From Lachnospiraceae bacterium (lineage in GTDB: Bacteria; Bacillota; Clostridia; Lachnospirales; Lachnospiraceae): a DNA stretch of 42,137 nt. The notes beneath the pieces were generated by a model that made no database searches, was not told the DNA's origin, and worked only from the letters and a program-made list of their open reading frames with translations. The DNA lies in the NCBI GenBank assembly GCA_017622845.1, contig JAGAQJ010000032.1, forward strand, positions 1 through 42,137, written 5' to 3'. A program made the position numbers and the translations under genes. Numbering within the stretch: the first letter of the stretch is position 1; the number at the start of each line of letters is the position of its first letter. Of this stretch, positions 1 through 19,972 are shown piece by piece.

Positions 1-180
1 CGGCGCGTCCGTGTAACGCAGGGCGTCCTTCTCCGAAAGCTGTCCGGCGGATACAAGCTGCAGCGTCAGGGTGCTGTGGCTGTTCGCCTCCTCCACGATA
101 TGGAGTTCCCTGACTGCCTCATAAGGCAGCGGGAAGTCAATAAGTATCCTGCTTAATTCTAAATATTCCCGGTCCGGCAT
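1..180 (-). CDS. VgrG-like spike protein, N-terminal fragment (runs off window)
   Basis: Only the first 60 codons are present; the gene continues beyond base 1. The ATG at 178-180 is preceded by a strong AAAGGAGGG ribosome site. The fragment (residues 15-30, PLPYEAVRELHIVEEA) lines up with the start of the complete VgrG at 1829-3226 (PIEKVLELHISHAPNT), which is the beginning of the gp27-like domain of VgrG/phage D proteins. It overlaps the end of the upstream Imm11-like gene by 22 bp, so the two are translationally close. A second VgrG next to a pentapeptide protein and an Imm11-like protein suggests a spike/cargo module. Which effector it carries cannot be seen from here. Confidence 0.65.
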   Translation of the reverse strand, partial: MPDREYLELSRILIDFPLPYEAVRELHIVEEANSHSTLTLQLVSAGQLSEKDALRYTDAP

Positions 181-731
181 AAAGCGCCCTCCTTTCCTGA
201 ACCCGAAAATGCCACAGGCTCAAATGTGATCCCTGTCATCTGTCGCCGGATCATGCTTTCTGCGACAGGCAGGGATATCACGATCCTGTATTCCAGAATA
301 TCCGCCACGCGGAATACATGGCGGTCATGGATGGGGGCATCCCTGTCCAGCACCAGCTTTTCCAGCATTCCGTTGGGATATTTTCTGCTTTCCATGCCCA
401 TGCAGCTTACAGCCTCAATGTATGGCATCCAGTAGAGCGGGGCTGTCCTGTCCTCCATGTCGTTTGCAAACAGCTGCACCCCCCTGAACTCCATCCTGGG
501 TTCATAGATCAGGAACACCCTCCTGAGTGCATCGGAAACCATAAACGCCGGTTCTTCCAGCACATCGCAGACCTCTGTCTGCTCGGAATGGTCGAAATAT
601 GCAACCTGCAGGCGTCTGATGGCATCAAAGCTTTCTTTTGGGATGCCGTTTTTGTAGATTTGGGTATCGATCTTTTGGATCTGTACCAGATTGGACAGAC
701 CGCGGTCTGCTTTCAGTTCAAAGTACCTCAT
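159..731 (-). CDS. Imm11/DUF1629-like protein
   Basis: This 190-residue protein has no signal peptide or membrane segment. The order of its motifs resembles the Imm11 (DUF1629) family: a mid-protein segment (AFMVSDALRRVFLIYEP), then a YW (residues 99-100) near a short strand, a central acidic/aromatic core, an FRVADI strand, and a C-terminal helix plus TGITFEPV strand (about residues 165-173). Imm11 proteins occur in polymorphic-toxin loci and also fused or next to secreted T6SS/VgrG cargo. Its ATGA overlap with the pentapeptide gene (728-731) and overlap with the second vgrG point to one transcriptional module. It could be an immunity protein, an adaptor or a cargo part; no toxin partner is recognised in the window. 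Family assignment is by eye. Confidence 0.5.
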   Translation of the reverse strand: MRYFELKADRGLSNLVQIQKIDTQIYKNGIPKESFDAIRRLQVAYFDHSEQTEVCDVLEEPAFMVSDALRRVFLIYEPRMEFRGVQLFANDMEDRTAPLYWMPYIEAVSCMGMESRKYPNGMLEKLVLDRDAPIHDRHVFRVADILEYRIVISLPVAESMIRRQMTGITFEPVAFSGSGKEGALCRTGNI

Positions 732-1813
732 GGATTCCCTCCTCCTTCTGCCGCTTTCACTGCTTCCTCAAAGCTTTCAGAAAGCAGGCACTCCTCTGTA
801 TGGACCGATTCCATCCGGCAGCCACGGAAATAACCTGCTGAAAAGTCACTGTCCTTCACGCCCACGCGGGTGAGGAAGCAGCCTGTGAACTCAGCATTTC
901 CGCGCGCATCCGGCAGGCTGTCCGTCTCCCCCTTCAGGAAATATGTACGCATCCCCTCCATCTGCACATCCTCAAACTTGCAGCCGTCAAACCTTGCCCC
1001 TGCAATATCCGTGTCAGAAAAGCTGCAGTTCAGAAACGTACAGCCTTCAAAGAAGGCATCCTTAAAGCTCACCGCGGCAAAGCTGCAGCTTTGGAACATA
1101 CAGGCATGAAACCTGCAGTCATCCAGAACCAGCGTGTCAAATGCCTTGTCCTCATACCATACTTCCCGGAACCGGCAGAATCTCAGGTCCGTATCTTCCT
1201 CACGGAAGAAAATATCTGTCTCCTTTCTGGATATCCATACAGGGCGCTGCCAGTCCATGTATTCGCCGAAAGAAATGCTGAAATCTTCCGCCTTCTTTAA
1301 GCTTTTGAATGCCTCTTTTTTCTCTATGTCACAGAGGTGGTACTTCACAAGGCCTGACCAGAAGTACAGGATATACCTGGATTTCCCCAGTGCATGGCTT
1401 CTGATGTAGGGCATACGTATCACGGCATTCATTCCCTGCCTTCCTGCCTCCTCATGGAGTTTTTCCAGAAGCCGGTCCCACTCCGGAAACAGCCATGGGG
1501 CTGGAAATTCCCTGAAAACCAGCGCGTCATCCATAAACGGCACTCCGGGATACGCCTCAAAGAGCAGATAGGGCGATCCGCATGCCAGCGAGGTGTAGGG
1601 AAATGAGATACAGACCGTCTGGACTTCTCCCAGCTTCCCGTTCTCCTGCAGGAAGGACAGGTTGCCGAGAAACAACTCCACGAAGCCGTTCAGCTTCCGG
1701 TTAATCTCCTCTGCATGGTCTGCCGCATGCTGCATGGCCTCTGCCATATATTCCCTGAAAACAGGGAGGTAACACTTCTCCCTGTACTGTTTTTCCCATT
1801 CCGTCCGATCCAT
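728..1813 (-). CDS. Pentapeptide-repeat protein of the VgrG module
   Basis: The protein has 361 residues from the ATG at 1813. An ATG at 1819 is less likely because it abuts the GGGAGG ribosome site. Residues about 1-210 are a helical, aromatic-rich domain I do not recognise. From about residue 215 to 335 the sequence turns into degenerate pentapeptide repeats with the A(D/N)LXX-type pattern, often with Cys or Phe at the centre (CRFHACMFQSCSF, FEGCTFLNCSF, ARFDGCKFEDVQM), predicted to form a right-handed quadrilateral beta-helix. Pentapeptide proteins occur as T6SS effectors and as VgrG/PAAR partners in the DUF2169-type group, and the position directly after vgrG fits that. No catalytic motif is evident. 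Role (adaptor or cargo) is inference. Confidence 0.55.
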   Translation of the reverse strand: MDRTEWEKQYREKCYLPVFREYMAEAMQHAADHAEEINRKLNGFVELFLGNLSFLQENGKLGEVQTVCISFPYTSLACGSPYLLFEAYPGVPFMDDALVFREFPAPWLFPEWDRLLEKLHEEAGRQGMNAVIRMPYIRSHALGKSRYILYFWSGLVKYHLCDIEKKEAFKSLKKAEDFSISFGEYMDWQRPVWISRKETDIFFREEDTDLRFCRFREVWYEDKAFDTLVLDDCRFHACMFQSCSFAAVSFKDAFFEGCTFLNCSFSDTDIAGARFDGCKFEDVQMEGMRTYFLKGETDSLPDARGNAEFTGCFLTRVGVKDSDFSAGYFRGCRMESVHTEECLLSESFEEAVKAAEGGGNP

Positions 1814-1828
1814 GTGCATCCCTCCCCG

Positions 1829-3226
1829 TCAGTTCAGAATAATATTTTTCGAGCTTACTGTTATCCCTTCATTCCGGATATCCATATAAGAGGATGCCGT
1901 TCCCACCATGACTTCGTTTTTGGCGATAATCTTTACCTCTTTCCCTCCCTGAATGTTTACCCGGGTTCCGGAAGTGATGTTAATATCCATATCCGAGACA
2001 ATCTCTATCCCGTGTTTATCACTGAGCTTCAGATAAAGTGTTCCTTCCTTGCATGTGATAGCCAGTCCCTCCGGCGTCATCAGAATTTGTTTCCCATTTA
2101 AACCGCTCCAGCATTTGTCCGTCACATTTTCACGCACGTTTTTTGCCACAGAGCTGGCAGCAAATGCATCTGCCTCGTTGCCTGATGGAAAGAACACGCG
2201 CACTTCGTCATCCTCAGCCGGCATGCTGTACCAGCCGCTTCCGTCCTGTGAGGAATATGCCGTTGAATATGGAAACCACCAGTCGCCGCCTCCGTCCGCC
2301 TCCGAGTCCACGGAGTTCAGAAATACCTTTACCTTATCTGCCTTCACATCGGTCACGATGCCGGTCATCATGCGCCCGGATGCCTGCTTGTTCTGAATCT
2401 CGGGCACACGGAAGCCAGTCTTGAGCGACAGCGAATAAGTACACTCCAGCATGCCGTCCGCCATGTCTGCCCGTACAGCACTGACTTGGGAACTGCGCCC
2501 GTTCAATGTCACGGTATCCCCCAGATACAGGTAATCATAGGAATGTACCTGCTCTGACGAAAAATCCTCTCTCAGGGCTGATGCTGCCAGTGTATTGTTG
2601 GAGGTCATCGACTGATAGTCTGCATCGCTTTTTGCGAAATCATAAGAAAAGGTCTGAATTGTCTTTGATTGTCCGGCGGGCGGAAGCCCGATATAGATCT
2701 GTGCTGTCTGTGCTATGATATTGGCGAATGCCGGCACTCCAAGCCGGGAGGCCATACGCACGATAAATTCCCAGTCTGTTTCATCACACTGCATGATCAG
2801 CGCACCAATTGGTTTGTCCGAAACCATTACGGACACAGTACCGTTCCCTGCCACAATCTGATTGAGTATCTGACCGTATGTCTTCTGTGTATTCTGGAAG
2901 GTACGGCTGCACTTTTTGGCATCCAGACGGCTGCTTGTCGTCTCTATGGAAAGGTCGATCACTGCATATTCCGGAAGCTGCTCGATGCTGAGCCTGCTGA
3001 TCACTCCATAAAAGAGCCTCCCGGGCTGTCCTTCAGCAGTTGTTGTAATCTCAATTCCTGTCGTCTCGTCTGCGCGCTCTGCAAAATCCCTTGCACTTTC
3101 ATAGGGCGCAATGCCCCTGATGTGCGCAGAACCATGTGTATTGGGCGCATGCGATATATGAAGCTCCAGCACCTTTTCAATCGGCGCGCCGTTTACTTGA
3201 ATATTTTCATAGGTAATCGTACTCAT
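1829..3226 (-). CDS. VgrG-type spike protein (gp27-gp5 fusion)
   Basis: This 465-residue protein starts at an ATG behind GAGGAGGAAG and has the layout of a contractile-machine spike. Residues 1 to about 275 form the hub-like gp27/phage-D domain. Residues 284-360 form a gp5 OB-fold (SGRMMTGIVTDV, WWFPYSTAY, DDEVRVFFPSGNE). Residues about 375-465 are a beta-prism/helix of short alternating strands (GIEIVSDMDINITSG, VNIQGGKEVKI, GITVSSKNI). This is short for VgrG (usually about 600) but near phage and eCIS spikes. It overlaps the upstream DcrB-like gene by ATGA. The spike should trimerise and be capped by the DUF4280 PAAR-like protein encoded two genes upstream. No C-terminal effector extension is present. 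Confidence 0.85.
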   Translation of the reverse strand: MSTITYENIQVNGAPIEKVLELHISHAPNTHGSAHIRGIAPYESARDFAERADETTGIEITTTAEGQPGRLFYGVISRLSIEQLPEYAVIDLSIETTSSRLDAKKCSRTFQNTQKTYGQILNQIVAGNGTVSVMVSDKPIGALIMQCDETDWEFIVRMASRLGVPAFANIIAQTAQIYIGLPPAGQSKTIQTFSYDFAKSDADYQSMTSNNTLAASALREDFSSEQVHSYDYLYLGDTVTLNGRSSQVSAVRADMADGMLECTYSLSLKTGFRVPEIQNKQASGRMMTGIVTDVKADKVKVFLNSVDSEADGGGDWWFPYSTAYSSQDGSGWYSMPAEDDEVRVFFPSGNEADAFAASSVAKNVRENVTDKCWSGLNGKQILMTPEGLAITCKEGTLYLKLSDKHGIEIVSDMDINITSGTRVNIQGGKEVKIIAKNEVMVGTASSYMDIRNEGITVSSKNIILN

Positions 3227-3864
3227 GACTGCACTTCCTCCTCTACCTGCTTTATGCGGAAGGATTTTACCATTTCCAATACGAGGGGCAGAAGCCGTTT
3301 GGCATATTTCTGGTCAAAGGTCACAGAGCCAATCAGCAGACGTCCCTCCAGCGATGTAAAAAACATGACATTATAATTCACCGAATCGATTGTCTGTGAT
3401 ACAAACTGCAGAATTGCAAGGCTGGTTCCTTCCTGTGTTATTTTTTCCTCATTCATAAAATGTGTCTTGGGTCCAATCCGGTCAATTGCATCCTTTGCAA
3501 ATTTGGTAAAGTCAAATATGCTTGCGTCCGGCATCAGGTTATTGGTCCAGTTAAACGCTGTCATAAAGTTCAGGTAGCCGTTGGAGAACACGTATCCCGG
3601 TCTGCTCCCAAGGAAATATACGCTTGCAATCTCATCTTCTGTACGGGGCGTAAAGTCCTCCGGCATCCGCATGACTGCCTTGTCTTCTATAATACTGTGG
3701 TCCCGGAAAATCACAGGAATGCCGAATATCGTGACCACCTCGTCATAGATGGACTGCTTGATTTCTTCCTCTACCACTTCCTCCGAATGGCGCACTTCCT
3801 CCAGCTTTTCCCGTTCCCTGCGTGCCTTCTGGATAAACTCATCACAAAACCCTTCTGCTCCCAT
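3223..3864 (-). CDS. DcrB/Eag-chaperone-like protein
   Basis: The 213-residue reading starts at the ATG at 3864, chosen because AGGGAGGTG lies 7 nt upstream and it begins one base after the PAAR-like gene; a longer ORF would run into that gene. Residues 5-45 are a charged helix (KARREREKLEEV). The rest resembles the DcrB/DUF1795 fold: a strand pair (GIPVIFRD), MPEDF, then a C-terminal pattern of MFFTSLEGRLLIGSVTF followed by LLPLVLEMVKSFRI. That ending is typical of T6SS EagR/EagT-like chaperones that hold effectors or PAAR proteins before loading. Genetic position between the PAAR-like protein and VgrG fits such a chaperone. The fold assignment is by eye and the function is inference. Confidence 0.45.
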   Translation of the reverse strand: MGAEGFCDEFIQKARREREKLEEVRHSEEVVEEEIKQSIYDEVVTIFGIPVIFRDHSIIEDKAVMRMPEDFTPRTEDEIASVYFLGSRPGYVFSNGYLNFMTAFNWTNNLMPDASIFDFTKFAKDAIDRIGPKTHFMNEEKITQEGTSLAILQFVSQTIDSVNYNVMFFTSLEGRLLIGSVTFDQKYAKRLLPLVLEMVKSFRIKQVEEEVQS

Positions 3865-3865
3865 A

Positions 3866-5092
3866 TCATTCACCTCCCTGCACAGGTATGTCTGACCTGC
3901 TGCATTCTGCACAATCACAGATATCCGGCTGCTTATCCGGCTTGTCCACTGTGAGCGTGATTGTACCAAGCTTTGTACGCTCTTTGCCCGAAAGTCTGTT
4001 ATCAAAGCTTTTCAATGTCATGGACTCCTCCACCAGTCCCTCCTCGTTATAGAATGAAAAGGTGCGCTCCTTCGCTTCCGCGTTCACCGGATCTGCACGA
4101 AAAGCTACACATCCGCAGTCTTTTGTCGTTGCATACATCATAATGGCTGCTTCCGCGTTCGCTGCCTCCCTGCTAATCGCCTCTATATCCGTGCCAAAGC
4201 AGTACTGCGTCCTGTAACCCTTTCGGTTCAGGGCATCAGCAATTCCAAGAGACACCGTGCCCAATTCCGGATGCTCAAGCGTTCCATAGCTTTCCATCTG
4301 CCCGGCTGCCTGCTGAAAAGTCATTTCGGTGTCAGGTTCCAATATCCTGACTGTATTATAAAGGGCAGCAGCAGCCGCGCCGACTGCGGAACTCACGCCG
4401 GATGATGACTGAATTGAGGCAGAAGCTCCTCCTTCCTGCGGCGGCATGGCGGACGCCAATGCCAGCGCAGTCTGCACTTTCTCAACTGTTTCCTCTCCAG
4501 CCTCACCCAGCTCAGCGATCTCTCCCATCGCTTCCGCCACTGCCTCATTAAAGGCTTCTCCTACCACATCCTCCGGCACTGGTGTCTGTTCATCTTCCCC
4601 TGCCTCTGCCGCTTCCTCTGCTGTTTCTTCATCTGTACTGCTTTCTTTTACAAAGGTAATCATTCCTCCATAACGACATGCGAGCTGGCTGTCCATAGTC
4701 AATGCAGGCGCCCCCTCCAAAATGCAGTCCTCATTTGCAAAAGTCCACGGCTGCGGTGTATTTGGTTTGCATTTATATGATATAATTCCCAGTTCTTCCA
4801 GCTTATCCATCACCTTATCGCCTATTGTGAATGCCATCGGTCCCATCAGGGCTTTGACCAATGTCTCGCGGAATGCCCGCTCCGGATTTTCTTCTGATTT
4901 GCAGTGTCCAAAATGTATTACATTTTTAGAAGTATGGTCATTTGCATTCATGACTGGCTGTGCATCGCAGTTTCCGCCTGCCAAAATGCCATGATCCTGA
5001 CCTACATTGATATAATTCTGCACCGTTCCCATACTGCATTCCATCTTCATAAGACGCGTGATATATTTCGGTTCGTCCTGTTCGCTTCCCAT
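3866..5092 (-). CDS. DUF4280 PAAR-like tip protein with degenerate C39-like C-terminal domain
   Basis: The product has 408 residues. The ATG at 5092 is preferred over the GTG just before it because of GGGGGG spacing. Residues about 18-150 match DUF4280, a PAAR-like spike tip: a first Cys-rich part, NVIHFGHCKSEENP, CKPNTPQPW, and a closing LACRYGGMITF. Residues about 151-222 are an acidic Ala/Glu/Gly linker. Residues about 236-384 resemble a papain-like C39-type peptidase domain (helix GAAAAALYNTVRIL, GIADALNRKGY, TFSFYNEEG). The expected catalytic Cys before the helix is Val, and the expected His before VAFR is Gly/Cys. The C-terminus ends in a CDCAEC cluster (about residue 392). The gene is one base upstream of the DcrB-like gene. 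Cargo or inactive-adaptor roles are both possible. Confidence 0.7.
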   Translation of the reverse strand: MGSEQDEPKYITRLMKMECSMGTVQNYINVGQDHGILAGGNCDAQPVMNANDHTSKNVIHFGHCKSEENPERAFRETLVKALMGPMAFTIGDKVMDKLEELGIISYKCKPNTPQPWTFANEDCILEGAPALTMDSQLACRYGGMITFVKESSTDEETAEEAAEAGEDEQTPVPEDVVGEAFNEAVAEAMGEIAELGEAGEETVEKVQTALALASAMPPQEGGASASIQSSSGVSSAVGAAAAALYNTVRILEPDTEMTFQQAAGQMESYGTLEHPELGTVSLGIADALNRKGYRTQYCFGTDIEAISREAANAEAAIMMYATTKDCGCVAFRADPVNAEAKERTFSFYNEEGLVEESMTLKSFDNRLSGKERTKLGTITLTVDKPDKQPDICDCAECSRSDIPVQGGE

Positions 5093-5117
5093 CACATCTT
5101 TCCCCCCATCCTTGTCA

Positions 5118-5894
5118 TCACTCTACCAATATGCTCCTATGCTTCTTCCCCTCTGTTCTTTTCCTGCTGCCGCCTCCTTTGACCTCGCGCAGTATGTCCA
5201 GCAGCCCTCTGTATAATTCTTCATTGTCCCCATTTCCGGTCATGTGACCGCTTCGCAGGGAGATATATGCTGTGAGCGCCTCCGCGCAGACAGGTTCCCC
5301 CCGGCTCAGTATTCCCAGACAGAAATTGATATCTGTCTGATTTTCCAGTGTGCAGGAAAGCATTTCTCTCGCAAATGCTTTGGTAAGCTCAGGGTGCAGC
5401 GTGCTGTGCCCCGGCGATGCATACTGGGCATGTACCATACTGAGCGTGTCGTATTCCGTCCCCCAGTCCTCAAAATCCTGATACCTGCAGCGCAGATATG
5501 CACCCTGCTGGAGTGTAAAGCGGCACAGTTCAATCTGCCCATCCTTTTGTACCGGATCCTCATCCAAAAATAATTCCATCTCATAGCGGATCATGGATTC
5601 CGTACGTTCTTCTCCCATATAATGAAGCTTCAGTATCCTCAGCTCATTTGTCGGTGCATAGCTGACAGGCGTCGGTTCTTTGATATAAAACACTTTTCCG
5701 TAAAACAGCACCAGACCCGGATGCACGATAATCGTATCCTTCGTTGTTGTGAGCCGGCATCCGCTGATAATCCCGTTTGCATACCCCGTATACAGAAGTT
5801 CTCCAAACCGGAAGCTGTAATCTGTAAATGCCTCCAACATCTGAGTCCGCAGCAAATATCCCTCACGGAACAGCGGAAAAATCTGTCCTATCAT
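5118..5894 (-). CDS. Baseplate- or fibre-like protein of the injection locus
   Basis: The start is the ATG at 5894 behind GGGAGGAAG; an in-frame ATG 36 bp upstream would overlap the Hsp70 gene and lacks that site. The 258-residue protein has an N-terminal region resembling the short beta modules seen in phage and eCIS baseplate or fibre-associated proteins: a tyrosine- and phenylalanine-rich helix, then NGIISGCRLTTT, TIIVHPGLVLFYGK and a further strand. This is the 'built-in start and initial-value' type of fold. The C-terminal third is helical and ends in a basic tail (KGGGSRKRTEGKKHR). I cannot name the family. It sits between the Hsp70 and PAAR-like genes and is probably co-transcribed with both. 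Confidence 0.45.
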   Translation of the reverse strand: MIGQIFPLFREGYLLRTQMLEAFTDYSFRFGELLYTGYANGIISGCRLTTTKDTIIVHPGLVLFYGKVFYIKEPTPVSYAPTNELRILKLHYMGEERTESMIRYEMELFLDEDPVQKDGQIELCRFTLQQGAYLRCRYQDFEDWGTEYDTLSMVHAQYASPGHSTLHPELTKAFAREMLSCTLENQTDINFCLGILSRGEPVCAEALTAYISLRSGHMTGNGDNEELYRGLLDILREVKGGGSRKRTEGKKHRSILVE

Positions 5895-5913
5895 AACGCT
5901 TCCTCCCTCATGC

Positions 5914-12438: not shown

Positions 12439-13282
12439 ATGCCTTAACCTTGTCCCCCATTCCTATCAGGACAATGCTGGCATTATCCTTTTCTTCCTTA
12501 GGATTTTGGTTTACCAATTCTATAATGTCATAGGCTTTCTGCTGACAATCTCCCTTTTGTCCCAGAATCGCTTCAATTTCCCTTGCACCCAGCAGCTCGT
12601 AGATGCCATCACTCATCAGCACGACAATATCATCCTGTTTCATCCTGACAGGTGCATCAAACAGTTCGATGTCCTTGAAACCATCCTGCCCCAGATAATT
12701 GTACAGTCTTTTATTTTCCAAAAGCCTTATTGCATCCTGACGCGAAATGATTCCTTCATGGAATTTCTGTTCTGCCAGCACAGCAATTGTATGACCGGAA
12801 GATACCGGGATGAGATTTCCTTCCCGGTACACACATATTTTTACATTTCCCACCAATGCATAATACAGAAGACCTGCCCGGATCATCACACACCCAAGGC
12901 TGGCTGAGCCACGGCTGTCATCTCCCAGCACCTTAAGAATCTCCTTATTGGCACGGTGAAAGGCTTTTCTGAAAAAATACTGGGGATTGTGAAAAGCATT
13001 GTAATCTCTGAAAATATCCATACATGCATCTACAGCAATCCGGCTGGCAATCCGTCCTCCATAAGCCTTTCCTGCACCGTCTGCCAGCACAGCCATGATG
13101 CCTGCCGCAGTCTCCATGCTGCCAATCTGATCCTCCTGTACCTCACGTCCGCCGATCGTCATGCTCTTGCCTATATCAGGCATCCGTTCCTTTTTGGACG
13201 GATACCTGATATACAGTCTTATCGTATCCAATATGAGTACACATACCGCCAGCAGTCCAATCATGAAAAAACAGTTATCCAT
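12413..13282 (-). CDS. PP2C-family Ser/Thr protein phosphatase, membrane-tethered
   Basis: The protein has 289 residues with an N-terminal hydrophobic helix (FFMIGLLAVCVLIL, residues 5-18) followed by the catalytic domain. The metal and catalytic residues are intact: ED at 50-51, ADG at 67-69, SDG at 224-226 and the final DN at 266-267. It resembles PppA/Stp-type phosphatases, which reverse threonine phosphorylation. In proteobacterial T6SS a PpkA kinase, PppA phosphatase and Fha protein form a switch. Here the phosphatase lies beside two FHA genes and a dead paralogue, but no kinase is visible. It is transcribed after the FHA genes. The end overlaps the start of the pseudophosphatase gene. 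Confidence 0.85.
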   Translation of the reverse strand: MDNCFFMIGLLAVCVLILDTIRLYIRYPSKKERMPDIGKSMTIGGREVQEDQIGSMETAAGIMAVLADGAGKAYGGRIASRIAVDACMDIFRDYNAFHNPQYFFRKAFHRANKEILKVLGDDSRGSASLGCVMIRAGLLYYALVGNVKICVYREGNLIPVSSGHTIAVLAEQKFHEGIISRQDAIRLLENKRLYNYLGQDGFKDIELFDAPVRMKQDDIVVLMSDGIYELLGAREIEAILGQKGDCQQKAYDIIELVNQNPKEEKDNASIVLIGMGDKVKAYEKAKFRI

Positions 13283-13315: not shown

Positions 13316-13819
13316 TTATGCTTCCCACATAAAGTTATTGCCGCAAAATGGTATGAATACAAATACAGACTTTCCAAGTTCAATCTTGTCGTAAGGATTC
13401 AATGGCGTCGGTACATACACTGCACTTTCATTCAGATATACCAGACCATTCGAATCCCCCGGAAGCAGAACAGACTCTTTCTTCTTCGGGTCAAATACGA
13501 TTACTGCGTGGTTGCGGCGTGATATCTCGTTGTCCCCGAGTATCTGGATATCCATATCATCTGCCCTTCCGACGAAGTTTTTACCTGATACGACTTTGTA
13601 GTCCTTTCCCTGCCGTGGGCCGGATATGCACACAATCCATCCGCAGACAGGCTTGATGTCCTCCTTGAAAAGCGCCTCCTCGACGTCGACCTCCGGCTTT
13701 TCTGTCTCCTTTTTTTCCTGAGTCTCTGTCTCTATATTGCAGTAGGGACATACTGTCCCATACCTTTTTTTGCTAAACATATGTCCGTTCTGACAACGGA
13801 TTAAATTTGATTCTCCCAT
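13316..13819 (-). CDS. Zinc-ribbon FHA-domain protein
   Basis: The 167-residue product starts at the ATG at 13819, chosen because GGGAGG lies just upstream; the in-frame GTG at 13837 is less good. The N-terminus holds a metal-ribbon pattern, Cys9 and His13 then Cys24 and Cys27 (RCQNGHMF, VCPYCN), followed by an acidic linker. Residues about 58-165 are an FHA fold: GR at 84-85, SRRNH at 100-104 and the closing strand KIELGKSVFVFIP. FHA domains bind phosphothreonine peptides. In type VI systems an Fha protein is the target of the kinase/phosphatase switch. The soluble FHA is next to a membrane-anchored FHA (13858-14382). Confidence 0.82.
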   Translation of the reverse strand: MGESNLIRCQNGHMFSKKRYGTVCPYCNIETETQEKKETEKPEVDVEEALFKEDIKPVCGWIVCISGPRQGKDYKVVSGKNFVGRADDMDIQILGDNEISRRNHAVIVFDPKKKESVLLPGDSNGLVYLNESAVYVPTPLNPYDKIELGKSVFVFIPFCGNNFMWEA

Positions 13820-13857
13820 ATTGACCTCCCTGCTCACACAAAATTTTCACAACCTGT

Positions 13858-14382
13858 TCAGCGAATCTGAAGCCTTGCCAGACTGATAAAGATAATGTCT
13901 CCCTTTTCAAGCTTGCACGGTTTCCCATAAGAAAGCTTGTATTTTCGCCCGTCACTTTTCTGTACGCTGACCCCATTCTTTGAGGATATATCCTCCACAT
14001 ACCATGTATCCTTCGTATAATTTAAAACTGCATGCTCCACATCAATCATACTGGCATATTCTGTATGATCGAGATTGACCGTCACCTCGTTTTCTCCCAC
14101 ATCACGTCCGATTACAATCCCGTTTTTTCCATAAATATCCCATGATGCGAGGTCTCCGCCCTGTTCATTCAGAAGCACCAGCTCAGAAGGTGTTCTCAAC
14201 GGCATACATTGTGTTTTATTCTCCTTATTTCCAGATGATGCCGGGAGCATCAGGTGAAAGATGCCTGCGAGCACTGCGAGCACTGCCCATAGCCAGCCTG
14301 CAAGCAGTCCAAGCCGATAACAGAGCAGCCCTGCAATTATCATACACAGCAGGGCTGACGCATAATTTAATTTTCTTACCAT
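13858..14382 (-). CDS. Membrane-anchored FHA-domain protein
   Basis: This 174-residue protein has two adjacent hydrophobic helices near its N-terminus (residues 8-22 and 25-46: LLCMIIAGLL, LWAVLAVLAG), then a short linker and an FHA domain at about 68-174. Diagnostic residues are GR at 92-93 (VIGRDVG), a modified SxxH motif (SMIDVEH, 111-117) and ISSKNGV at 132-138, which corresponds to the N-G turn. It probably docks a phosphorylated partner at the inner face of the membrane. It starts with ATG and lies 9 bp from the upstream J-protein gene. The membrane-FHA, soluble FHA, PP2C and pseudo-PP2C genes are contiguous and overlapping or near-overlapping, consistent with one signalling complex. 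Confidence 0.82.
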   Translation of the reverse strand: MVRKLNYASALLCMIIAGLLCYRLGLLAGWLWAVLAVLAGIFHLMLPASSGNKENKTQCMPLRTPSELVLLNEQGGDLASWDIYGKNGIVIGRDVGENEVTVNLDHTEYASMIDVEHAVLNYTKDTWYVEDISSKNGVSVQKSDGRKYKLSYGKPCKLEKGDIIFISLARLQIR

Positions 14383-14391
14383 AGTGATTCC

Positions 14392-14832
14392 CTACCTCTT
14401 GATGTTTCCCATAAAAGCTTCAAATATCTTTGTCGTGTCCAGCGGATTGCCTGTTTTCATATCAGGTCTTAATTTCTCCTCATTCACCACCTTCTTCGTT
14501 CTCGGATTAAATCCGAAGAACGACTCAAAGCTTTCGGATATGTCCTGAAAATTTACTTTTCCTGTCTCTGCAGCGGTCTTTGTTTTCTCCTTGGTGATAT
14601 CATCAGTGTCCTTTTTCTGATGTCCGCCAAGCTCCTCGTCATATCTGCGGCGTTTCTTTGGGTCTGAGAGAATTGTATATGCCTCTGTTATTTCCTTAAA
14701 CCGGGACTCACACTCCGCATCACCGGGGTGCGCATCCGGATGATATTTTTTTGCCAGCTTCCGGTATGCAGACTTGATTTCTCCCTCGGATGCCTGTCTG
14801 GATATCTGCAGGACACGATACCAGTCTGTCAT
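14392..14832 (-). CDS. J-domain co-chaperone
   Basis: The product has 146 residues from the ATG at 14832 (GGCGGTGG upstream); a longer ATG at 14865 precedes that site and is disfavoured. Residues 1-70 form a J domain with helix [14 protein letters not shown], the invariant HPD at 31-33, and helix [24 protein letters not shown]. After that there is no Gly/Phe-rich region, zinc finger or beta-barrel, so it is not a standard DnaJ. A short tail ([13 protein letters not shown], ending FMGNIKR) follows. It is preceded by a hairpin terminator after the tube genes, suggesting lower expression than the structural proteins. Its natural partner is the Hsp70-like ATPase encoded downstream in the same locus. 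Confidence 0.85.
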
Positions 14833-14938
14833 TGTTCCACCGCCTTTCCTTTTATGGCTGTCCAAAATATTTTTTGAACCGGTATTTTAATGCAGAAAAC
14901 ACTTTGGAGGACCATAAAGCATATGCCTGAATTTTTAA

Positions 14939-14989: not shown

Positions 14990-15418
14990 TCAGGCGCCAA
15001 TATAGCCTCCTTCGATAGCGATTGTATCTAATTTATCTTTTTTCTGTTTAATAACGATTGTAAATTGTCCAATGCCATCGCTGTTTGAGAAATCTTCCTT
15101 GTAATCAACCACGAATGCACGTGGGAAGCTGTATTTTCTCTCCACAATACCGGCATTGATAATCTCTACCTCTACCTGCCTGTAGGCTGCTGATTCCTCT
15201 GCCGGAACCACAGACCACAGCGCAAGCTGTCTGGTGCTGTCAAACGGATCGCCGTCTGTTGCCACCAGAATTTTTCCGGTAATCTCTAATGTACTTCCTA
15301 CATCCTTTGTCCTTGCGTTGGAATCCAGCGGAATATCTGTACGAAACTTTATCTTCTGTACACAATCTTTTGCTACCTCAAAACTATTTGCCCCATTTAC
15401 TTTTACGCGTAATGACAT
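14990..15418 (-). CDS. Tube protein candidate (Hcp-like paralogue 2)
   Basis: This 142-residue protein is all-beta by eye and has no signal peptide. It is clearly paralogous to the next gene (15433-15858): both share a central DSNAR motif (residues 36-40), the I-x-GK-(L/I)-L strand, the A-x-WSVVP stretch, and a C-terminal KQKKDK/KQKKDL region followed by a short I(E)GG. Size and location after the sheath gene are as expected of Hcp/tail-tube proteins. I assign it by synteny and fold impression, not by a diagnostic motif. It begins behind GGAGGTG with 14 bp separating it from the first paralogue and precedes the hairpin at 14939-14972. Confidence 0.6.
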   Translation of the reverse strand: MSLRVKVNGANSFEVAKDCVQKIKFRTDIPLDSNARTKDVGSTLEITGKILVATDGDPFDSTRQLALWSVVPAEESAAYRQVEVEIINAGIVERKYSFPRAFVVDYKEDFSNSDGIGQFTIVIKQKKDKLDTIAIEGGYIGA

Positions 15419-15432
15419 ATGTATCCACCTCC

Positions 15433-15858
15433 TTATTCACTAAATCCGCCTTCGATGCTGGTCAGCCTGGTCAAATCCTTCTTCTGCTTTACATGCAGGT
15501 AAAATTCTCCTACGCCTGTCTCATCATCAAGCTCTTCCTCATACTCCATGACAAATGCATTGGGAAGCGTATACTGTCTTACCACCTGATTAGCGGCTAC
15601 TACGTCTACCTTTACATTTCTGTAAGCATCTGCGCTCTCACTTGGCACCACGCTCCACTTTGCAAGATTGAGTGTGGTATCCTGTGCCTCTGCTCCCAGA
15701 GAAAATAACAGTTTTCCGCGTATTTTCATTGCGGTTCCATTATCTGTTGCTCTGGCATTGGAATCTTTAGGAATCTCTGAAAAAAATTCCACGCTTGTCA
15801 CGCACTGTTCTGTCAGGCTCACCGGACCTGATCCATCAATTGTTACTCTGAAACCCAT
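15433..15858 (-). CDS. Tube protein candidate (Hcp-like paralogue 1)
   Basis: The product has 141 residues, behind a GGAGGTAA ribosome site. It shares the DSNAR motif and the strand pattern of its neighbour, plus the same N-terminal F/L-R-V-x-x-(D/N)G start and a final IEGGF. Two tube paralogues directly downstream of a sheath gene match the order in contractile phages and in some eCIS, where one copy forms the tube and another starts or caps it. The two are similar in length but differ in charge. I see no evidence of effector function. The sheath gene ends 36 bp upstream. Confidence 0.6.
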   Translation of the reverse strand: MGFRVTIDGSGPVSLTEQCVTSVEFFSEIPKDSNARATDNGTAMKIRGKLLFSLGAEAQDTTLNLAKWSVVPSESADAYRNVKVDVVAANQVVRQYTLPNAFVMEYEEELDDETGVGEFYLHVKQKKDLTRLTSIEGGFSE

Positions 15859-15894
15859 AGCTTTACCTCCTTATAGACAAATCTGAGTCTTATC

Positions 15895-18078
15895 TTACAC
15901 TCCGGAAATACGATTGATTTGTACTTCCAAATTCCTTGGACTGCCATTAAAGGAAAGCGTCAGTTCACAGATACCATTCGTGTCATTGATACTGTAATCC
16001 AAACTGTCTCCTTCTGTGATAATCGCATTGATGCAGTCCTGTTTTGCAAGCCACTTGCTCTTCTGGCTCTTGGGATTATTCGAGAAGAAATCGCGTATAT
16101 TATCTTCCTTGAAATCTCCTGTCACATATCTCAAAATCCTCTCAATGTAAGTAGTGACCTGTGTTTTATATACCGGCTCATAAGTTGAGTGCTCTGTATC
16201 GTACAGAAGATTTCTCGCCTTATAGACCGTTATATTCGTAATTGCTGTCCCATCCTGGGATGCATTCTCTGAAGCAAACACCCACCCGAAATTTTTCTGG
16301 TTAATCTGGGTTTTGATCGTGTTGGTAAACCCTGTTATCTCCTTGGGCATGGTCGTATATGCCATCAGCGAATGATTTCCTGCCTCAATATCAAACCGGA
16401 CACCGGGCAGTTCCAAATCCGTTCTTACTTTTGTCATGTTAAAATGATTCTTTAAATATTCCGGACACTGGCATGCTGCACGGAAACCTGCAGCTACATA
16501 GGCGCCGCTTATGTAGACGCCTTCAATCCAGAGTCTTATGATATCCTCTTTTGCCTCTGAAAGCTCTACGCCATTGTCATCTGTAATATGCATCCTGCTG
16601 TCGAGCACCACCCCTGACTTATTCTTGGGAAGTACTGTGAAATTGGGAAGTACCGGTATTGCAAATTCACTGTATGGTTTCCCGATTAGCGGCGCACAGC
16701 GCTCAATCATCTTTTCAATTCCCTCTGCTGCAACAGCATTAAAGGTCGTCTCCTCCCTGTTTTCGAAGGAGAAGAACGTCTCTACCCTGTAATCCTTAAA
16801 GACATTCAAGAGCGTACTCAATGCCTCCATACTGTATACATCGCTTCCTGCTTTCTTGACATTTCCCTGAAAGCGCTCTCTGTGAATTTTATTGCTCACA
16901 TTCTGACTCCATGACAGATTCGGGTAGATAGCATACCATATCGTGTCATTGAAGTTATTTTTGCTGTTCGTTGTATTCAAATATGTAATCAGTCTTGGTA
17001 TATTCGGACTTTTCGCCAATACTTCCGGTGAGATGTTGGCAACCAATAGCGTAGGCGCCATTCCTTTTGTCTTGCTCTTATACTGGTCAAAGAACATCCT
17101 GATGCCTAAGAGCTTTTCTACCAGCGGCTTTACTACCTTGATAAAGTTATCTTTTGAAGTACGGTAAAATTCCAAATAAGAATTGTAATTTGCCACTTCT
17201 GTCTCGACATCAATCTCTGTCGGTGTTGTCACAGTCAGTGGGCAGAATGTTCGTACCACCAAATTTTGTACATAATCGTTAGGCGATTCGTTCACCGATT
17301 GGTAATCGTCTGCCAAAATCTCAACCAGACCTGCTGTCACCTCATCATCCACAACTGCCAGACTGGTAGACTCCTCTTTCGGTGCCTCCAGAATCTTCAG
17401 CTCTCCGTTCTCCCCCATTGTAAGGACACCTGCAACAACACCTTTTCCGTCATTTTCCTGTCCGCCGTTTCCCAGCAGGAGACGTGTCTTGATATCTTCT
17501 ATTGCAAGCGGCAGCATCGCCATAATGTTGTTATAGTTTTTGCTGGCATCTTCAAACAGAAGGTTCAGCTTGTCTCCCAGATCAAGTTTCGCCGGATCTC
17601 CGTCTTCCAGACTGGAATATTTTTGATAGTTGTATTGAATTTCTTTGCGCACCAGTTTGATGTCTTCCATCACTTTCTTGGGGGAAATCATCTCCAAAAG
17701 CTGCTCAAAATGGAACTCAACATTCAGCAGTCCTTGTGCCTTTCTGGATTCCATGACAGTCAGAATTGTCTTGAAGAAGCTGTCATAGTCGTTGAGGTTG
17801 ATTGCTGTCAGCATAGATGCCGGAATCGTCTCGGGACGCTCCAGTGTATATCTGACCGACTGCGAGTTCGCGTCAAAAAATGACCAGACAGTAGGTTCAA
17901 ATTTGCGTTCCATCTCCTCATAACTGTGACATTCCAAATGCTGGTTAATCTCCCGCATCTGGTCATCACTCAGGCTGTCAAGGCCTTTTACATCTCCAAT
18001 CAGTGTCAACAAATCCATTTTGTCCGGATTAATCATATCCAGAAGCAATGTTCGGTTCGTTTGATTGATTATCTCCAT
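15895..18078 (-). CDS. Contractile sheath candidate (TssBC-like)
   Basis: This 727-residue protein starts with an ATG behind AAGGAGTG. It is much longer than TssC (about 500), which could mean a fused TssB-TssC unit. Residues 1-150 are helical with the acidic/hydrophobic pattern of the TssB/VipA part. The C-terminal half has TssC-like features: FIKVVKPLVEKLLGI (about 308-322), an ISGAYVAAGFRAAC stretch (533-546), a KEITGFTNTIKTQINQ helix (580-595), and TTYIERILRYVTGDF followed by the ISGV C-terminus. Position immediately before two tube-like genes supports a sheath. I do not see ATPase motifs or a signal peptide. Contraction and inter-subunit strands are inference. Confidence 0.65.
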   Translation of the reverse strand: MEIINQTNRTLLLDMINPDKMDLLTLIGDVKGLDSLSDDQMREINQHLECHSYEEMERKFEPTVWSFFDANSQSVRYTLERPETIPASMLTAINLNDYDSFFKTILTVMESRKAQGLLNVEFHFEQLLEMISPKKVMEDIKLVRKEIQYNYQKYSSLEDGDPAKLDLGDKLNLLFEDASKNYNNIMAMLPLAIEDIKTRLLLGNGGQENDGKGVVAGVLTMGENGELKILEAPKEESTSLAVVDDEVTAGLVEILADDYQSVNESPNDYVQNLVVRTFCPLTVTTPTEIDVETEVANYNSYLEFYRTSKDNFIKVVKPLVEKLLGIRMFFDQYKSKTKGMAPTLLVANISPEVLAKSPNIPRLITYLNTTNSKNNFNDTIWYAIYPNLSWSQNVSNKIHRERFQGNVKKAGSDVYSMEALSTLLNVFKDYRVETFFSFENREETTFNAVAAEGIEKMIERCAPLIGKPYSEFAIPVLPNFTVLPKNKSGVVLDSRMHITDDNGVELSEAKEDIIRLWIEGVYISGAYVAAGFRAACQCPEYLKNHFNMTKVRTDLELPGVRFDIEAGNHSLMAYTTMPKEITGFTNTIKTQINQKNFGWVFASENASQDGTAITNITVYKARNLLYDTEHSTYEPVYKTQVTTYIERILRYVTGDFKEDNIRDFFSNNPKSQKSKWLAKQDCINAIITEGDSLDYSINDTNGICELTLSFNGSPRNLEVQINRISGV

Positions 18079-18118
18079 TTCTTTTCACTCCTTGTATTTT
18101 CATTATTTGTGATAACGC

Positions 18119-18146
18119 ATAACTATTCAGTATCCTCATAGTTACA
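18119..18146. repeat. Short palindromic repeat, copy A
   Basis: Sequence TAACTAT at 18119-18125 pairs with ATAGTTA at 18139-18145. A near-identical motif, including the central GTA-CCTC bases, occurs at 32390-32416. Copy A lies in the 85-bp gap between the VWA gene and the sheath gene and could be a cotranscribed stem-loop. It lacks a T run, so it is not a typical terminator. Confidence 0.55.
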
Positions 18147-18163
18147 ATAGCGCTTACCCTTTC

Positions 18164-19972
18164 TCAATACATTTCTGACGGTTTTAACTCCCTGTACTGA
18201 AAAGTCAGTTCGCTAATCTCATCTTCAAATGCAATATCGACTTTTGCTCCGGCAAAAAGCTGGTAGCTCTTCCTTTTCATGAGAATTTCCCCGCTTTTCA
18301 TAATGCAGCAGTCCGACTGATTGGTTAAAATGACGCTGTGTCCTTGTCCGGAACTGATAAAAATCCGGTCAGCGCCTTCAAATCTTTCCCTGATCCCACA
18401 GCTTACAAGTATCTCAGCTATCGAGACAACCCTGGTAGACGGAAGCCGGAACAAATCATATGACAGCGGACTGATATCATATCCCGACGCTGTTCTTGTG
18501 ATGTAAATATTCAGCCTCCCTGCATAACTGGACTTTCCCGGCTCCGGACGCCCATCATTCTCCGGAATAACTACCGGCTTCCTTTCTTTGTGCAGCCTGA
18601 CTGCTATGGACACGATTAAAACAATCAATACAAGAATCAGAAATGCGATACCATACACCACACCCGGAATTCCTTCCGGCTCCTCTATGGGAAGTGCAGG
18701 CGGTTCCTCCAGCGTCACTGTCACTGTACTGATACCAAGTATATTCGCAGGAAACTCCATGCAATGAAATGACACTTCATTTATACAGCTCTTTGTCACT
18801 GTCTCGCACATCTTTATTTGTCCTTTTTCCAACGTACCTTCCCTGATTTCTCCCCCTATCTCTGCTGAAAGCTTGCTGTGTGTAAAATACTCTTCTGTCC
18901 ACAACTGGATATTGTCATTTTCCATATCATAAAATGTATATGTAATTTCAGCTTCTCTGTCATACACCAATGCTTCTTCCGCTTCAGGAACATGATCCTT
19001 ATACACAACTGACGCCTTAGTAACAACCCAATATTCTGGTATTAATGTAATGCGCACCTGATTTCCTGACGTCCCTCTAAAGTGTACATCTATCCTGTTT
19101 CCCTTAGGACTGTCAATCTCTATCAGAGAATAGCGTTCCCCATTGACCTGTCTGGCACCTTCTGCATTAAAATTTGTCGTTAAGTCCTGTATGGGAGAAC
19201 TGCTTGTCAGAAGCACACGAACTGTACTTGCATTAGCAAACGGCATGTCTATTTCCATTTTCACCGGTTCCTCACCAGCATCAATGATAGCCGCTGTCAT
19301 CTGTCTGACCTGGAACTGTCCCTGCAGTATGGAATCAATGGAAGTCTGTATTTCCAAAGCCTGCGGAGAATGATACATTCCCCCGCCTGTTTTTACCGCT
19401 GCCTGAAAAATGGAATTTTCTGTATCTTCCATTTCTTCGCCCAACCCGATTACATGAATCCGAATTCCGTCTTTTGCGGCCTGCGCGGATGCCTCCTGAT
19501 ACAATGTATACGAAAGTGCAGTCGCAGCCTCGTCTTCCATCAGACACTCGCCGTCAGAAAGCAAGACAATATCCTTCTCTGCTGCAGAACAGGCTGACAA
19601 CATTCCTACTGCCTGATCCATCCCTGCTCCTGCATTACTATAACCTGTATACCGGACAGCTTCCGCTGCTTCCATTATTCCGCTTCTATGAGTATTATCT
19701 AAAAGCGGCTGGATTGTACAGACCTCCGCATTATATGCCACAAACCCAATTTTGTAATTAGATGGCAGTGTGTAAATGAATTGTGCAATACTGTCAATCG
19801 CATAACGATTGGGATCATTTGTTTTCATGCTTCCGCTTGCATCCAACAGGAATACGACTGCCTTTTCTGTTTCTGTTATATCTTCCGCATATACAGAATA
19901 GGGAATTGTGACAGCCAGCAGGAATATCCAGACTGCGGCAAAACATTTGATCAGAATATTTCTTCTTCCCAA
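18164..19972 (-). CDS. Secreted/anchored VWA-domain membrane protein
   Basis: This 602-residue protein starts at a TTG (19972) with GGGAGGAG upstream and heads the locus. It has an N-terminal signal peptide (residues 1-29, cleavage near VYA-ED). A von Willebrand A domain (about 37-215) follows with MIDAS DASGS at 44-48 and a second metal-site candidate LLSDG at 136-140. A beta-rich middle segment leads to a membrane helix at about 438-459. The cytoplasmic C-terminus (about 480-595) looks like a distorted FHA fold (ISSGQGHSVILTN). The likely topology is VWA outside and FHA-like inside, a receptor that could anchor the apparatus to the membrane. VWA proteins also occur in T6SS-like and chaperone-ATPase loci; this role is inference. 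Confidence 0.78.
   Translation of the reverse strand: MGRRNILIKCFAAVWIFLLAVTIPYSVYAEDITETEKAVVFLLDASGSMKTNDPNRYAIDSIAQFIYTLPSNYKIGFVAYNAEVCTIQPLLDNTHRSGIMEAAEAVRYTGYSNAGAGMDQAVGMLSACSAAEKDIVLLSDGECLMEDEAATALSYTLYQEASAQAAKDGIRIHVIGLGEEMEDTENSIFQAAVKTGGGMYHSPQALEIQTSIDSILQGQFQVRQMTAAIIDAGEEPVKMEIDMPFANASTVRVLLTSSSPIQDLTTNFNAEGARQVNGERYSLIEIDSPKGNRIDVHFRGTSGNQVRITLIPEYWVVTKASVVYKDHVPEAEEALVYDREAEITYTFYDMENDNIQLWTEEYFTHSKLSAEIGGEIREGTLEKGQIKMCETVTKSCINEVSFHCMEFPANILGISTVTVTLEEPPALPIEEPEGIPGVVYGIAFLILVLIVLIVSIAVRLHKERKPVVIPENDGRPEPGKSSYAGRLNIYITRTASGYDISPLSYDLFRLPSTRVVSIAEILVSCGIRERFEGADRIFISSGQGHSVILTNQSDCCIMKSGEILMKRKSYQLFAGAKVDIAFEDEISELTFQYRELKPSEMY

What the first reader, a model, noticed from the sequence alone, without database searches (positions are those of the whole stretch)
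1..19972. Complete-looking Gram-positive contractile injection locus with chaperone and FHA/PP2C parts
The sequence shows VgrG, a PAAR-like tip, a large TssBC-like protein and two Hcp-like paralogues in one dense minus-strand block. The same block has Hsp70/J proteins, two FHA proteins, a PP2C and a VWA membrane protein. Known T6SS or eCIS classes would bring ClpV, TssJLM or an AAA+ ATPase, none of which I see here. A Lachnospiraceae version of this kind is, to my knowledge, little described. The naming of sheath and baseplate is inference.
Basis: partly seen in the sequence, partly recalled or inferred. Interest (0 to 1): 0.9.

Follow-up and report, generated by a model that had tools for sequence, protein, structure and literature searches.

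The report
Phage-tail-like injection machine in Gram-positive bacteria
This gut bacterium carries an 18-gene block that looks like a spring-loaded, phage-tail-like syringe for firing proteins into other cells, of a kind known from Gram-negative bacteria but built here with different support parts and also found in many Gram-positive bacteria, where such a machine had been suspected but not described in the papers I could search.

Summary
The block is real. Eighteen minus-strand genes (window 159-19972) encode a VgrG spike, a DUF4280 PAAR-like tip, two Hcp-type tube proteins, a 727-aa sheath candidate, a DcrB/Eag-like chaperone, Imm11, an Hsp70/actin-type ATPase, a J protein, two FHA proteins, two PP2Cs, a VWA membrane protein and three conserved families of unknown fold. 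The set recurs, mostly in the same order, across Bacillota (Lachnospiraceae, Paenibacillus, Pelosinus and others); a viral-contig scan found no relative. TssF and IcmF/TssM were absent from 8 of 8 carrier genomes and none had ClpV above the cut-off. Best reading: a cell-anchored, T6SS-like contractile injection system with its own envelope and chaperone parts. The tube call is sub-threshold but specific; the sheath call rests on a TssB-like N-terminal part (profile E 2e-4; next of 24 profiles 0.044). [quoted passage not shown] this locus is a strong candidate. Window base 1 is a contig edge, so completeness is undecided.

The parts
18164..19972 (-). VWA membrane protein, 602 aa: signal-like segment 4-29, VWA domain, TM 432-463, C-terminal tail
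   Evidence: Pfam VWA 7e-12; hydropathy; counted before the sheath in 61 of 65 loci with >=2500 b upstream (two of the four misses, L075 and L082, do list a VWA)
15895..18078 (-). Sheath candidate, 727 aa; TssB-like in residues ~24-147, the rest without a significant match
   Evidence: hhalign A2 vs TssB E 2e-4, best of 24 profiles (next 0.044), reversed control best 0.11; 0.008-0.009 with wide alignments; no credible Pfam/PDB/NCBIfam/PHROG hit
15433..15858 (-). Hcp-type tube protein B, 141 aa
   Evidence: A5 family: TssD hit at E<=1 in 26 of 47 members; none alone in Pfam
14990..15418 (-). Hcp-type tube protein A, 142 aa (40% identical to B)
   Evidence: Pfam TssD 0.015; family TssD 26 of 47 at E<=1; only PDB hit Hcp1 6bdc, E 0.5
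14392..14865 (-). J-domain protein, up to 157 aa
   Evidence: Pfam DnaJ 2.8e-27; 56 of 57 loci with >=9900 b downstream
13858..14382 (-). FHA protein with N-terminal hydrophobic segment(s), 174 aa
   Evidence: Pfam FHA 6e-9; hydrophobic 8-51
13316..13837 (-). FHA protein with cysteine-bearing N-terminus, 167-173 aa
   Evidence: Pfam Yop-YscD_cpl 6e-9, FHA 8e-6; likely start at codon 7
12413..13282 (-). PP2C phosphatase with N-terminal TM, 289 aa
   Evidence: Pfam PP2C_2 6e-9; TM 1-26
10585..12438 (-). PP2C-like / TM / TPR-like protein, 617 aa
   Evidence: Pfam PP2C_2 0.0016, SpoIIE 0.0014, TPR_2 0.008, all under cut-off; TM 253-284
9271..10572 (-). p433, conserved protein of unknown fold (baseplate candidate, inference)
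   Evidence: A3/A10: no family or PDB match; homologous to the ~430-aa protein of four divergent loci, E 5e-38
8550..9257 (-). p235, conserved protein of unknown fold (baseplate candidate, inference)
   Evidence: A4: no match; found in the four divergent loci
5914..8535 (-). Hsp70/actin-superfamily ATPase, 873 aa, with extra N-terminal ~220 residues
   Evidence: hhalign vs DnaK E 1e-5, vs MreB 1e-4, seven T6SS profiles >=0.2; DFG...T and DCGGGTTD invariant in 17 sequences
5118..5930 (-). p270, conserved protein (likely 258 aa from codon 13), unknown fold; TssK-like is only a hunch
   Evidence: A6: no credible Pfam/PDB hit; TssK E 0.19, 0.31; start
3866..5095 (-). DUF4280 PAAR-like tip with a C-terminal extension of ~250 aa
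   Evidence: Pfam DUF4280 2e-20, residues 17-151 of 409
3223..4005 (-). DcrB/DUF1795-like (Eag-type) chaperone; likely real start at codon 48, giving 213 aa
   Evidence: A7 profile: best two PDB hits DcrB 13cz E 8e-4 and DUF1795 6e8a E 0.002, though the best single stretch of DcrB has only E 0.1; no Pfam hit in 22 members; start
1829..3226 (-). VgrG spike, 465 aa
   Evidence: Pfam Phage_GPD 4e-8, base_V 1e-4; hhalign of the family vs T6SS VgrG E 8e-15
728..1819 (-). pentapeptide-repeat protein, cargo-module member
   Evidence: Pfam 1e-11; same place in several relatives
159..731 (-). Imm11-family protein; the contig ends 158 b further on
   Evidence: Pfam Imm11 4e-8
20327..22147 (-). HTH-TPR protein upstream of the block (possible regulator, not core)
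   Evidence: Pfam HTH_3, TPR; kept upstream in G002 and G009

Best explanation
A cell-anchored contractile injection system that works like a T6SS but uses its own envelope and chaperone parts. Shown: the gene set, its recurrence, and family matches for VgrG, DUF4280 tip, J protein, FHA, PP2C, VWA and an Hsp70/actin ATPase; weaker but specific matches for the Hcp-type tube and the DcrB/Eag-type chaperone. Inferred: the 727-aa protein is a one-chain TssB+TssC sheath around the tube; p433, p235 and p270 form the baseplate that holds VgrG; the VWA, PP2C-TM-TPR and FHA-TM proteins replace TssJLM as the envelope dock; firing is set by Ser/Thr phosphorylation read by FHA and reset by PP2C, with a kinase-like gene beside the locus in several relatives; the Hsp70-type ATPase, helped by the J protein, folds or recycles sheath subunits in place of ClpV. 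On contraction the VgrG/DUF4280 spike and attached cargo (in relatives PAAR-Rhs, extended VgrG or PAAR-nuclease proteins), loaded by the Eag-like chaperone, are driven into a neighbouring cell, and Imm11 proteins protect kin.
For: Commonest order VWA-sheath-Hcp-Hcp-DnaJ-FHA-FHA-PP2C-PP2C-[cargo]-p433-p235-Hsp70-p270; Hcp in 72 of 73 loci with >=1800 b downstream, DnaJ 56, FHA 53-54, PP2C 53 of 57 with >=9900 b. TssD the only recurring family: 26 of 47 at E<=1, and 2 of 3 divergent tubes over most of the model, E 0.003. Sheath vs TssB E 2e-4 over the GD..G..SL..K, FDE and NVDF..ISPKKV stretches; in the wide set TssB (0.008) and TssC (0.036) are the best two of 24. VgrG E 8e-15. DcrB/DUF1795 top two PDB hits. 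An Hsp70-type gene in each long map that reached that end of the locus, including four divergent loci without FHA/PP2C/DnaJ hits; one of these holds an Hsp70-VWA fusion. DUF4280-Rhs proteins of 1707 and 1715 aa in the islands. Kinase-like genes beside some loci. No viral relative.
Against: No structure. TssC match not significant (E 0.036 at best; 0.06-0.13); no match to P2 or Mu sheath. The TssB match weakens from 2e-4 to 0.008-0.009 with wider alignments. No TssE/F/G/K match for p433/p235/p270. The tube profile is not significant against proteobacterial Hcp (E 0.12). Selenomonas ruminantium G406 shows sheath to Hsp70 but no p433, p235, p270 or VgrG in its 40 kb, and L096, L101, L113 and L124 show p433-p235 followed by VgrG with no Hsp70 before the stretch ends. 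Order varies (G010, G012:C18, G034, G296, G408, L098, L107). Kinase in only 1 of 80 genome-contig loci. Hsp70-as-ClpV and dock roles rest on position and analogy. The contig edge hides the end of this copy.
Confidence: 0.72

Rival explanations
1. It is an extracellular particle (eCIS or tailocin-like): assembled in the cytoplasm and released on lysis, the membrane proteins serving regulation only.
For: eCIS are reported in Gram-positive bacteria (PMC10598620, passages); no recognisable TssL/TssM dock.
Against: No AAA+ ATPase, gp25 or tail-fibre family in Pfam for the 20 window proteins and the p433/p270 relatives scanned; four proteins with membrane segments plus FHA/PP2C and an Eag-like chaperone fit a cell-anchored, reloaded device.
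Confidence: 0.13
2. The 727-aa protein is not a sheath; the block is a phospho-regulated protein-export or surface-assembly system that borrows VgrG/PAAR/Hcp-like parts.
For: No significant TssC match, no baseplate homologue; TssB match weakens with wider alignments.
Against: A tube-like protein and VgrG are kept beside it even in four divergent loci; TssB-like N-terminus; VgrG/PAAR have no role outside contractile machines that I recall.
Confidence: 0.1
3. It is simply a known T6SS class (i-iv) with diverged genes.
For: Shared spike, tube, FHA, PP2C; firmicutes are listed for T6SS in Table 1 of PMC3482391 (passage).
Against: TssF 0 of 8, IcmF-related 0 of 8, ClpV above cut-off 0 of 8 carrier genomes, with the E. 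coli control ringing; VipB 0 of 1; three core families unmatched. Classes ii-iv were not compared by profile.
Confidence: 0.04
4. Defective prophage tail.
For: VgrG and PAAR domains are phage-derived (recalled).
Against: No relative in viral contigs (44 pattern-bearing stretches, none confirmed); no head, portal or integrase family among the 20 window proteins scanned; relatives over several Bacillota families.
Confidence: 0.01

Closest known systems
Type VI secretion system (T6SSi, e.g. E. coli W cluster L146)
   Same: VgrG, PAAR-type tip, Hcp-type tube, TssB-like sheath part, FHA protein; Eag-type chaperones and Rhs cargo as in T6SS (that parallel is recalled; parts found here)
   Different: No TssE/F/G/K or TssL/M match in the block, no TssF, IcmF or cut-off-grade ClpV in 8 of 8 genomes; one-chain sheath candidate; Hsp70-type ATPase, J protein and VWA membrane protein; many hosts lack an outer membrane (recalled)
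Francisella T6SSii (IglG, DUF4280 tip)
   Same: DUF4280 PAAR-like tip in a non-canonical set (PMC5349215 whole text, PMC5014421 passages)
   Different: Francisella has separate IglA/IglB sheath proteins and an IcmF-family protein (PMC5014421 passages); not compared by sequence here
Bacteroidetes T6SSiii
   Same: Lacks the trans-envelope complex (PMC4793230 passage). The only PDB hit of the tube profile is Hcp1 6bdc, E 0.5; its Bacteroides origin is recalled
   Different: T6SSiii has TssN/O/P and nine T6SSi homologues (PMC4793230 passage); TssN/O/P not tested here
eCIS (Afp/PVC/MAC type)
   Same: Contractile, VgrG and PAAR-type spike (recalled)
   Different: AAA+ ATPase, gp25 and fibre families not found among the proteins scanned
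T6SS threonine phosphorylation pathway (PpkA/PppA/Fha; recalled)
   Same: FHA plus PP2C, with a kinase-like gene beside some loci
   Different: Two FHA and two PP2C-like proteins; no kinase seen in this block

Membership tests
T6SS | TssB/TssC contractile sheath | tested here: inconclusive
   TssB E 2e-4 (0.008-0.009 wide); TssC E 0.036 at best; no structure
T6SS | Hcp tube | tested here: met
   weak but specific: TssD in 26 of 47 members at E<=1, best 0.001, only recurring family; 2 of 3 divergent tubes E 0.003; against: proteobacterial Hcp profile E 0.12
T6SS | VgrG spike | tested here: met
   Pfam, hhalign E 8e-15
T6SS | PAAR or PAAR-like tip | tested here: met
   DUF4280 2e-20
T6SS | Baseplate TssE/F/G/K | tested here: not met
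   no profile match in the block; TssF 0 of 8 genomes; TssE/G/K not searched genome-wide
T6SS | Membrane complex TssJ/L/M | tested here: not met
   IcmF-related_N 0 of 8 genomes; no block protein matches TssL/TssM profiles; TssJ not tested
T6SS | ClpV/TssH | tested here: not met
   0 of 8 genomes above the TIGR03345 cut-off; all 8 carry lower-scoring Clp-type matches
eCIS | AAA+ ATPase, gp25, tail fibre in the cluster | tested here: not met
   Pfam on 20 window proteins and on 34 and 14 members of the p433 and p270 families; genome-wide not tested
eCIS | released as free particles | not testable with these tools
   needs microscopy
prophage / tailocin | relatives in viral contigs | tested here: not met
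   44 pattern-bearing stretches in viral contigs, none encoding a relative
Hsp70/actin (ASKHA) ATPases | phosphate-1 and phosphate-2 motifs (names recalled), DnaK-like profile | tested here: met
   invariant motifs in 17 sequences; DnaK E 1e-5, MreB 1e-4
Hsp70 (Pfam PF00012) | match to the Hsp70 model | tested here: not met
   window gene not among the G000 matches at E<=0.001
Eag/DcrB chaperones | DUF1795/DcrB fold | tested here: met
   weak but specific: best two PDB hits of the profile, E 8e-4 and 0.002 for whole chains; Pfam on 22 members gave none

The most novel reading that the evidence does not exclude
A separate class of contractile injection system, long established in Bacillota with one or two membranes, in which a one-chain sheath, a private baseplate (p433/p235/p270), an Hsp70-type ATPase in place of ClpV/AAA+, and a VWA/PP2C/FHA envelope dock replace the parts that define T6SS and eCIS: the 'unknown phage-like translocation system' of Gram-positives foreseen in PMC5349215 and PMC8651086.
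Probability: 0.55. Interest if true: 0.93.

Novelty: new variant of a known kind. Interest (0 to 1): 0.84.

Why it matters
T6SS had been described only in Gram-negative bacteria (PMC5349215), and a survey of secretion systems found no diderm-type secretion locus in the monoderm genomes it examined (PMC4793230, passage). Orphan PAAR/VgrG genes in Firmicutes led two papers to ask whether Gram-positives own an unknown phage-like device (PMC5349215; PMC8651086). This locus supplies a tube, a sheath candidate, chaperones and membrane parts, in hosts with named genomes (Pelosinus fermentans, Paenibacillus ehimensis, Lacrimispora, Selenomonas), so the question becomes directly testable. If an Hsp70 drives sheath turnover, that is a new energy source for such machines; and gut Lachnospiraceae would hold an unrecognised weapon in community competition.

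Tried and rejected
Structure prediction of the sheath (A2) was asked 32 times, each time answered 'busy'; hence no fold search. Family and PDB searches of sheath, p433, p235 and p270 gave nothing credible (Pfam; NCBIfam and PHROGs; PDB; p235 relatives were not scanned in Pfam). The 3wrn (NS-1) hit to the A2-like profile A1 at E 0.006 covers 43 residues and vanished with the wider A9, set aside. p270 as a TssK shoulder domain: E 0.19, kept only as a hunch. Imm11 as a structural adaptor, because of its fixed place beside VgrG or sheath in many maps: put second after a 593-aa protein beside an Imm11 gene in a divergent locus showed an AHH nuclease hit 1.3 bits under its cut-off; PMC3482391 lists Tox-AHH among Imm11 partners (passage). 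I call that 593-aa protein PAAR-like by eye and place; DUF4280 did not hit it at E<=1. G886 as a distant carrier (E 3e-4): its 40-kb stretch shows no other core gene, rejected. In one search the first MreB control used a wrong frame; redone. Vertical descent is not claimed: the quick tree mixes some names.

Full report
WHAT IS THERE. The window is one whole contig (G000:C15, 42,137 b). From 19972 down to 159 eighteen minus-strand genes follow each other with gaps of -26 to 124 b; 16 of 18 have a purine-rich ribosome-like site before their first or a later start, DnaJ and the 617-aa gene do not. Pfam identifies VWA, TssD (weak, one of two copies), DnaJ, two FHA, PP2C, a PP2C/SpoIIE-TPR protein, DUF4280, Phage_GPD/base_V (VgrG), pentapeptide repeats and Imm11. 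The 727-, 433-, 235-, 270-, 260- and 873-aa proteins have no credible hit alone. Upstream lies an HTH-TPR protein, kept in two relatives.

HOW WIDESPREAD. The 727-aa protein has matches in 29 of 98 relatives (own genome included; G029 and G032 by parts only), 13 of 398 genomes drawn over the phylum (own included, two by parts), 14 of 200 in the class of G441 and 29 of 299 in the class of G402 (G886 in the last set is probably chance). In genome contigs 414 of 517 pattern-bearing stretches encode relatives; only the best 80 were kept (L051-L130), Bacillota wherever the tree listing names a phylum. In viral contigs 44 stretches bore a pattern and none encoded a relative. A quick tree of 89 rows separates a Paenibacillus-type group, Selenomonas/Pelosinus and two large Lachnospiraceae groups with support of 96 or more for most of these forks, but Oscillospiraceae and single Erysipelotrichaceae and Paenibacillaceae MAGs fall inside other groups, so some transfer or mis-binning is likely.

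WHAT IS CONSERVED. Of the 80 loci 79 have a usable sheath frame. Hcp follows in 72 of 73 loci with >=1800 b downstream; DnaJ in 56 of 57, FHA2 in 54 of 57, FHA1 and PP2C in 53 of 57 with >=9900 b; VWA precedes in 61 of 65. p433, p235 and Hsp70 are seen in 37, 34 and 34 of 57 (any of the three: 42), since cargo islands often push them beyond the 10-kb flank; but L096, L101, L113 and L124 show p433-p235 followed by VgrG without Hsp70 before the stretch ends. In longer maps they are present in G002, G010, G012 (two loci), G059, G037, G009, G023, G034, G082, G001, G402, G196, G296, G408, G871, G754 and G509, in varying order in some. The exception is G406 (Selenomonas ruminantium): sheath, two Hcp, DnaJ, FHA, PP2C and Hsp70, but no p433, p235, p270 or VgrG hit in 40 kb. 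Four divergent loci (G441, G324, G627, G575) keep sheath (about 25% identity for the two aligned), Hcp, VgrG, p235, Hsp70-type ATPases, Imm11, and p270 in three (in G441 the stretch ends before its place), and a 420-446-aa protein that is p433 (profile E 5e-38); no FHA, PP2C or DnaJ hit. So the smallest shared set is sheath, tube, VgrG, p433, p235, p270 and an Hsp70-type ATPase, with a tip that I name by eye only in the divergent loci (DUF4280 did not hit the one tested). G441 carries three further HSP70-model matches within the locus, one in a protein fused to a VWA domain (HSP70 1e-91, VWA 1e-21).

IDENTITY OF PARTS. Tube: TssD is the only family hit by more than 2 of 47 members (26 at E<=1; best 0.001); 2 of 3 divergent tubes hit it over most of its length at E 0.003; the only PDB hit is Hcp1 6bdc at E 0.5. 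Against proteobacterial Hcp the profile is not significant (0.12), its best of 24 being the P2 tube protein (0.037). Sheath: the A2 profile matches TssB from nine clusters at E 2e-4; of 24 T6SS and phage profiles the next is TssE 0.044, TssC has 0.13, and the reversed alignment gives 0.11 at best. With wider alignments TssB falls to 0.008-0.009 (0.002 for the N-terminal half alone) but stays first; in the widest set TssC comes second at 0.036. Chaperone: the 260-aa family's best PDB hits are DcrB (8e-4) and a DUF1795 protein (0.002), with a single-stretch E of 0.1 for DcrB; that Eag chaperones have the DUF1795 fold is recalled. ATPase: DnaK E 1e-5, MreB 1e-4, seven T6SS profiles >=0.2. VgrG: E 8e-15 to T6SS VgrG. 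p433, p235, p270: nothing below 0.02 in 24 profiles each.

WHAT IS ABSENT. In eight carrier genomes TssF and IcmF-related_N have no match (0 of 8 each) and no gene passes the ClpV cut-off (0 of 8), with the E. coli control positive in each; VipB is absent from the own genome. TssE, TssG, TssK, TssJ and TssL were not searched genome-wide.

CARGO. Islands between the second PP2C and p433, and beyond VgrG, hold extra VgrG, DcrB-like, Imm11 and DUF4280 proteins. Two DUF4280-Rhs proteins of 1707 and 1715 aa and a protein with an AHH nuclease hit just below cut-off beside Imm11 look like toxins, the last with an immunity partner. In the window only the DUF4280 protein with its 250-aa tail and the Imm11 protein are seen; a partner may lie past the contig edge.

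MECHANISM. See Best explanation. Shown: gene set and family matches. Inferred: contraction, baseplate, docking, Hsp70-driven turnover, phospho-gating. Kinase-like genes (named from their sequence starts by eye, no family search) lie beside the locus in G402, G196, G296, G034 and, in part, G001; a profile of four of them finds one in 1 of 80 genome-contig loci (L129) and in G871 and G754. I saw none in the block.

LITERATURE. Ten searches. From titles and abstract starts of the papers listed (several lists are capped, e.g. 25 of 2,642) I saw no description of such a locus; preprints and most subscription papers are not held. PMC8651086 (passages) states that Phage_GPD-type genes lie mainly beside PAAR_H2 (DUF4280) genes in Firmicutes without conserved T6SS or eCIS genes and speculates on an unknown phage-like system; PMC5349215 (whole text) raised the same idea; PMC4793230 (passages) found no diderm-type system in monoderms; PMC3482391 (passages) lists firmicutes under T6SS in a table, without this locus in the passages I saw; PMC10598620 (passages) says eCIS occur in Gram-positives; PMC5014421 (passages) gives the Francisella parts.

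VERDICT. A real, widespread contractile-injection-type locus, undescribed in what I could search; new variant of a known kind, possibly a class of its own. The missing proof is the sheath and baseplate folds.

Noticed in passing
window 35322-35486 (-), 35590-35756 (+), 41956-42122 (-): Three copies of the TwoAYGGAY candidate RNA (RF01731; 86-92 bits, cut-off 43), two of them back to back about 100 b apart.
   Followed up: no
L038/L039 (G034:C3), L145 (G001:C50): Second (and in G034 third) sheath-like paralogues of about 680 aa at 25-31% identity beside Hsp70 and p433, in loci that also have the normal sheath: a mixed sheath or a second device.
   Followed up: partly
L133:3584-5647 (-): One protein joining an Hsp70 and a VWA domain in the divergent locus G441, with two more HSP70-model matches near it.
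   Followed up: partly
L139-L140 (G406): Selenomonas ruminantium locus with sheath, tube and Hsp70-type gene but no p433, p235, p270 or VgrG hit within 40 kb, and a third, longer Hcp-like protein of 241 aa.
   Followed up: no
L133-L136, L165: A ~1000-aa protein before the PAAR-like gene in the divergent loci G441, G324 and G627 (994-1030 aa, similar starts), not searched for a family.
   Followed up: no
window 20327-22147 (-): HTH protein with TPR repeats and a second HTH in the middle, kept upstream of the block in G002 and G009: possible peptide-sensing regulator.
   Followed up: no
window 5914-8535 (-): Strongly conserved N-terminal stretch of the Hsp70-type protein (LELMTTYQLREIC..KDELIR.IMRFRG) that looks to me like a SAP/HeH-type helix pair (recalled, not searched), unusual in an Hsp70.
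   Followed up: no
G037:C77 8274-8953 (L031): Two short frames 89% identical to parts of the Hsp70-type gene lie downstream of an intact copy, across a cargo island: a partial duplication, perhaps left by island insertion.
   Followed up: no
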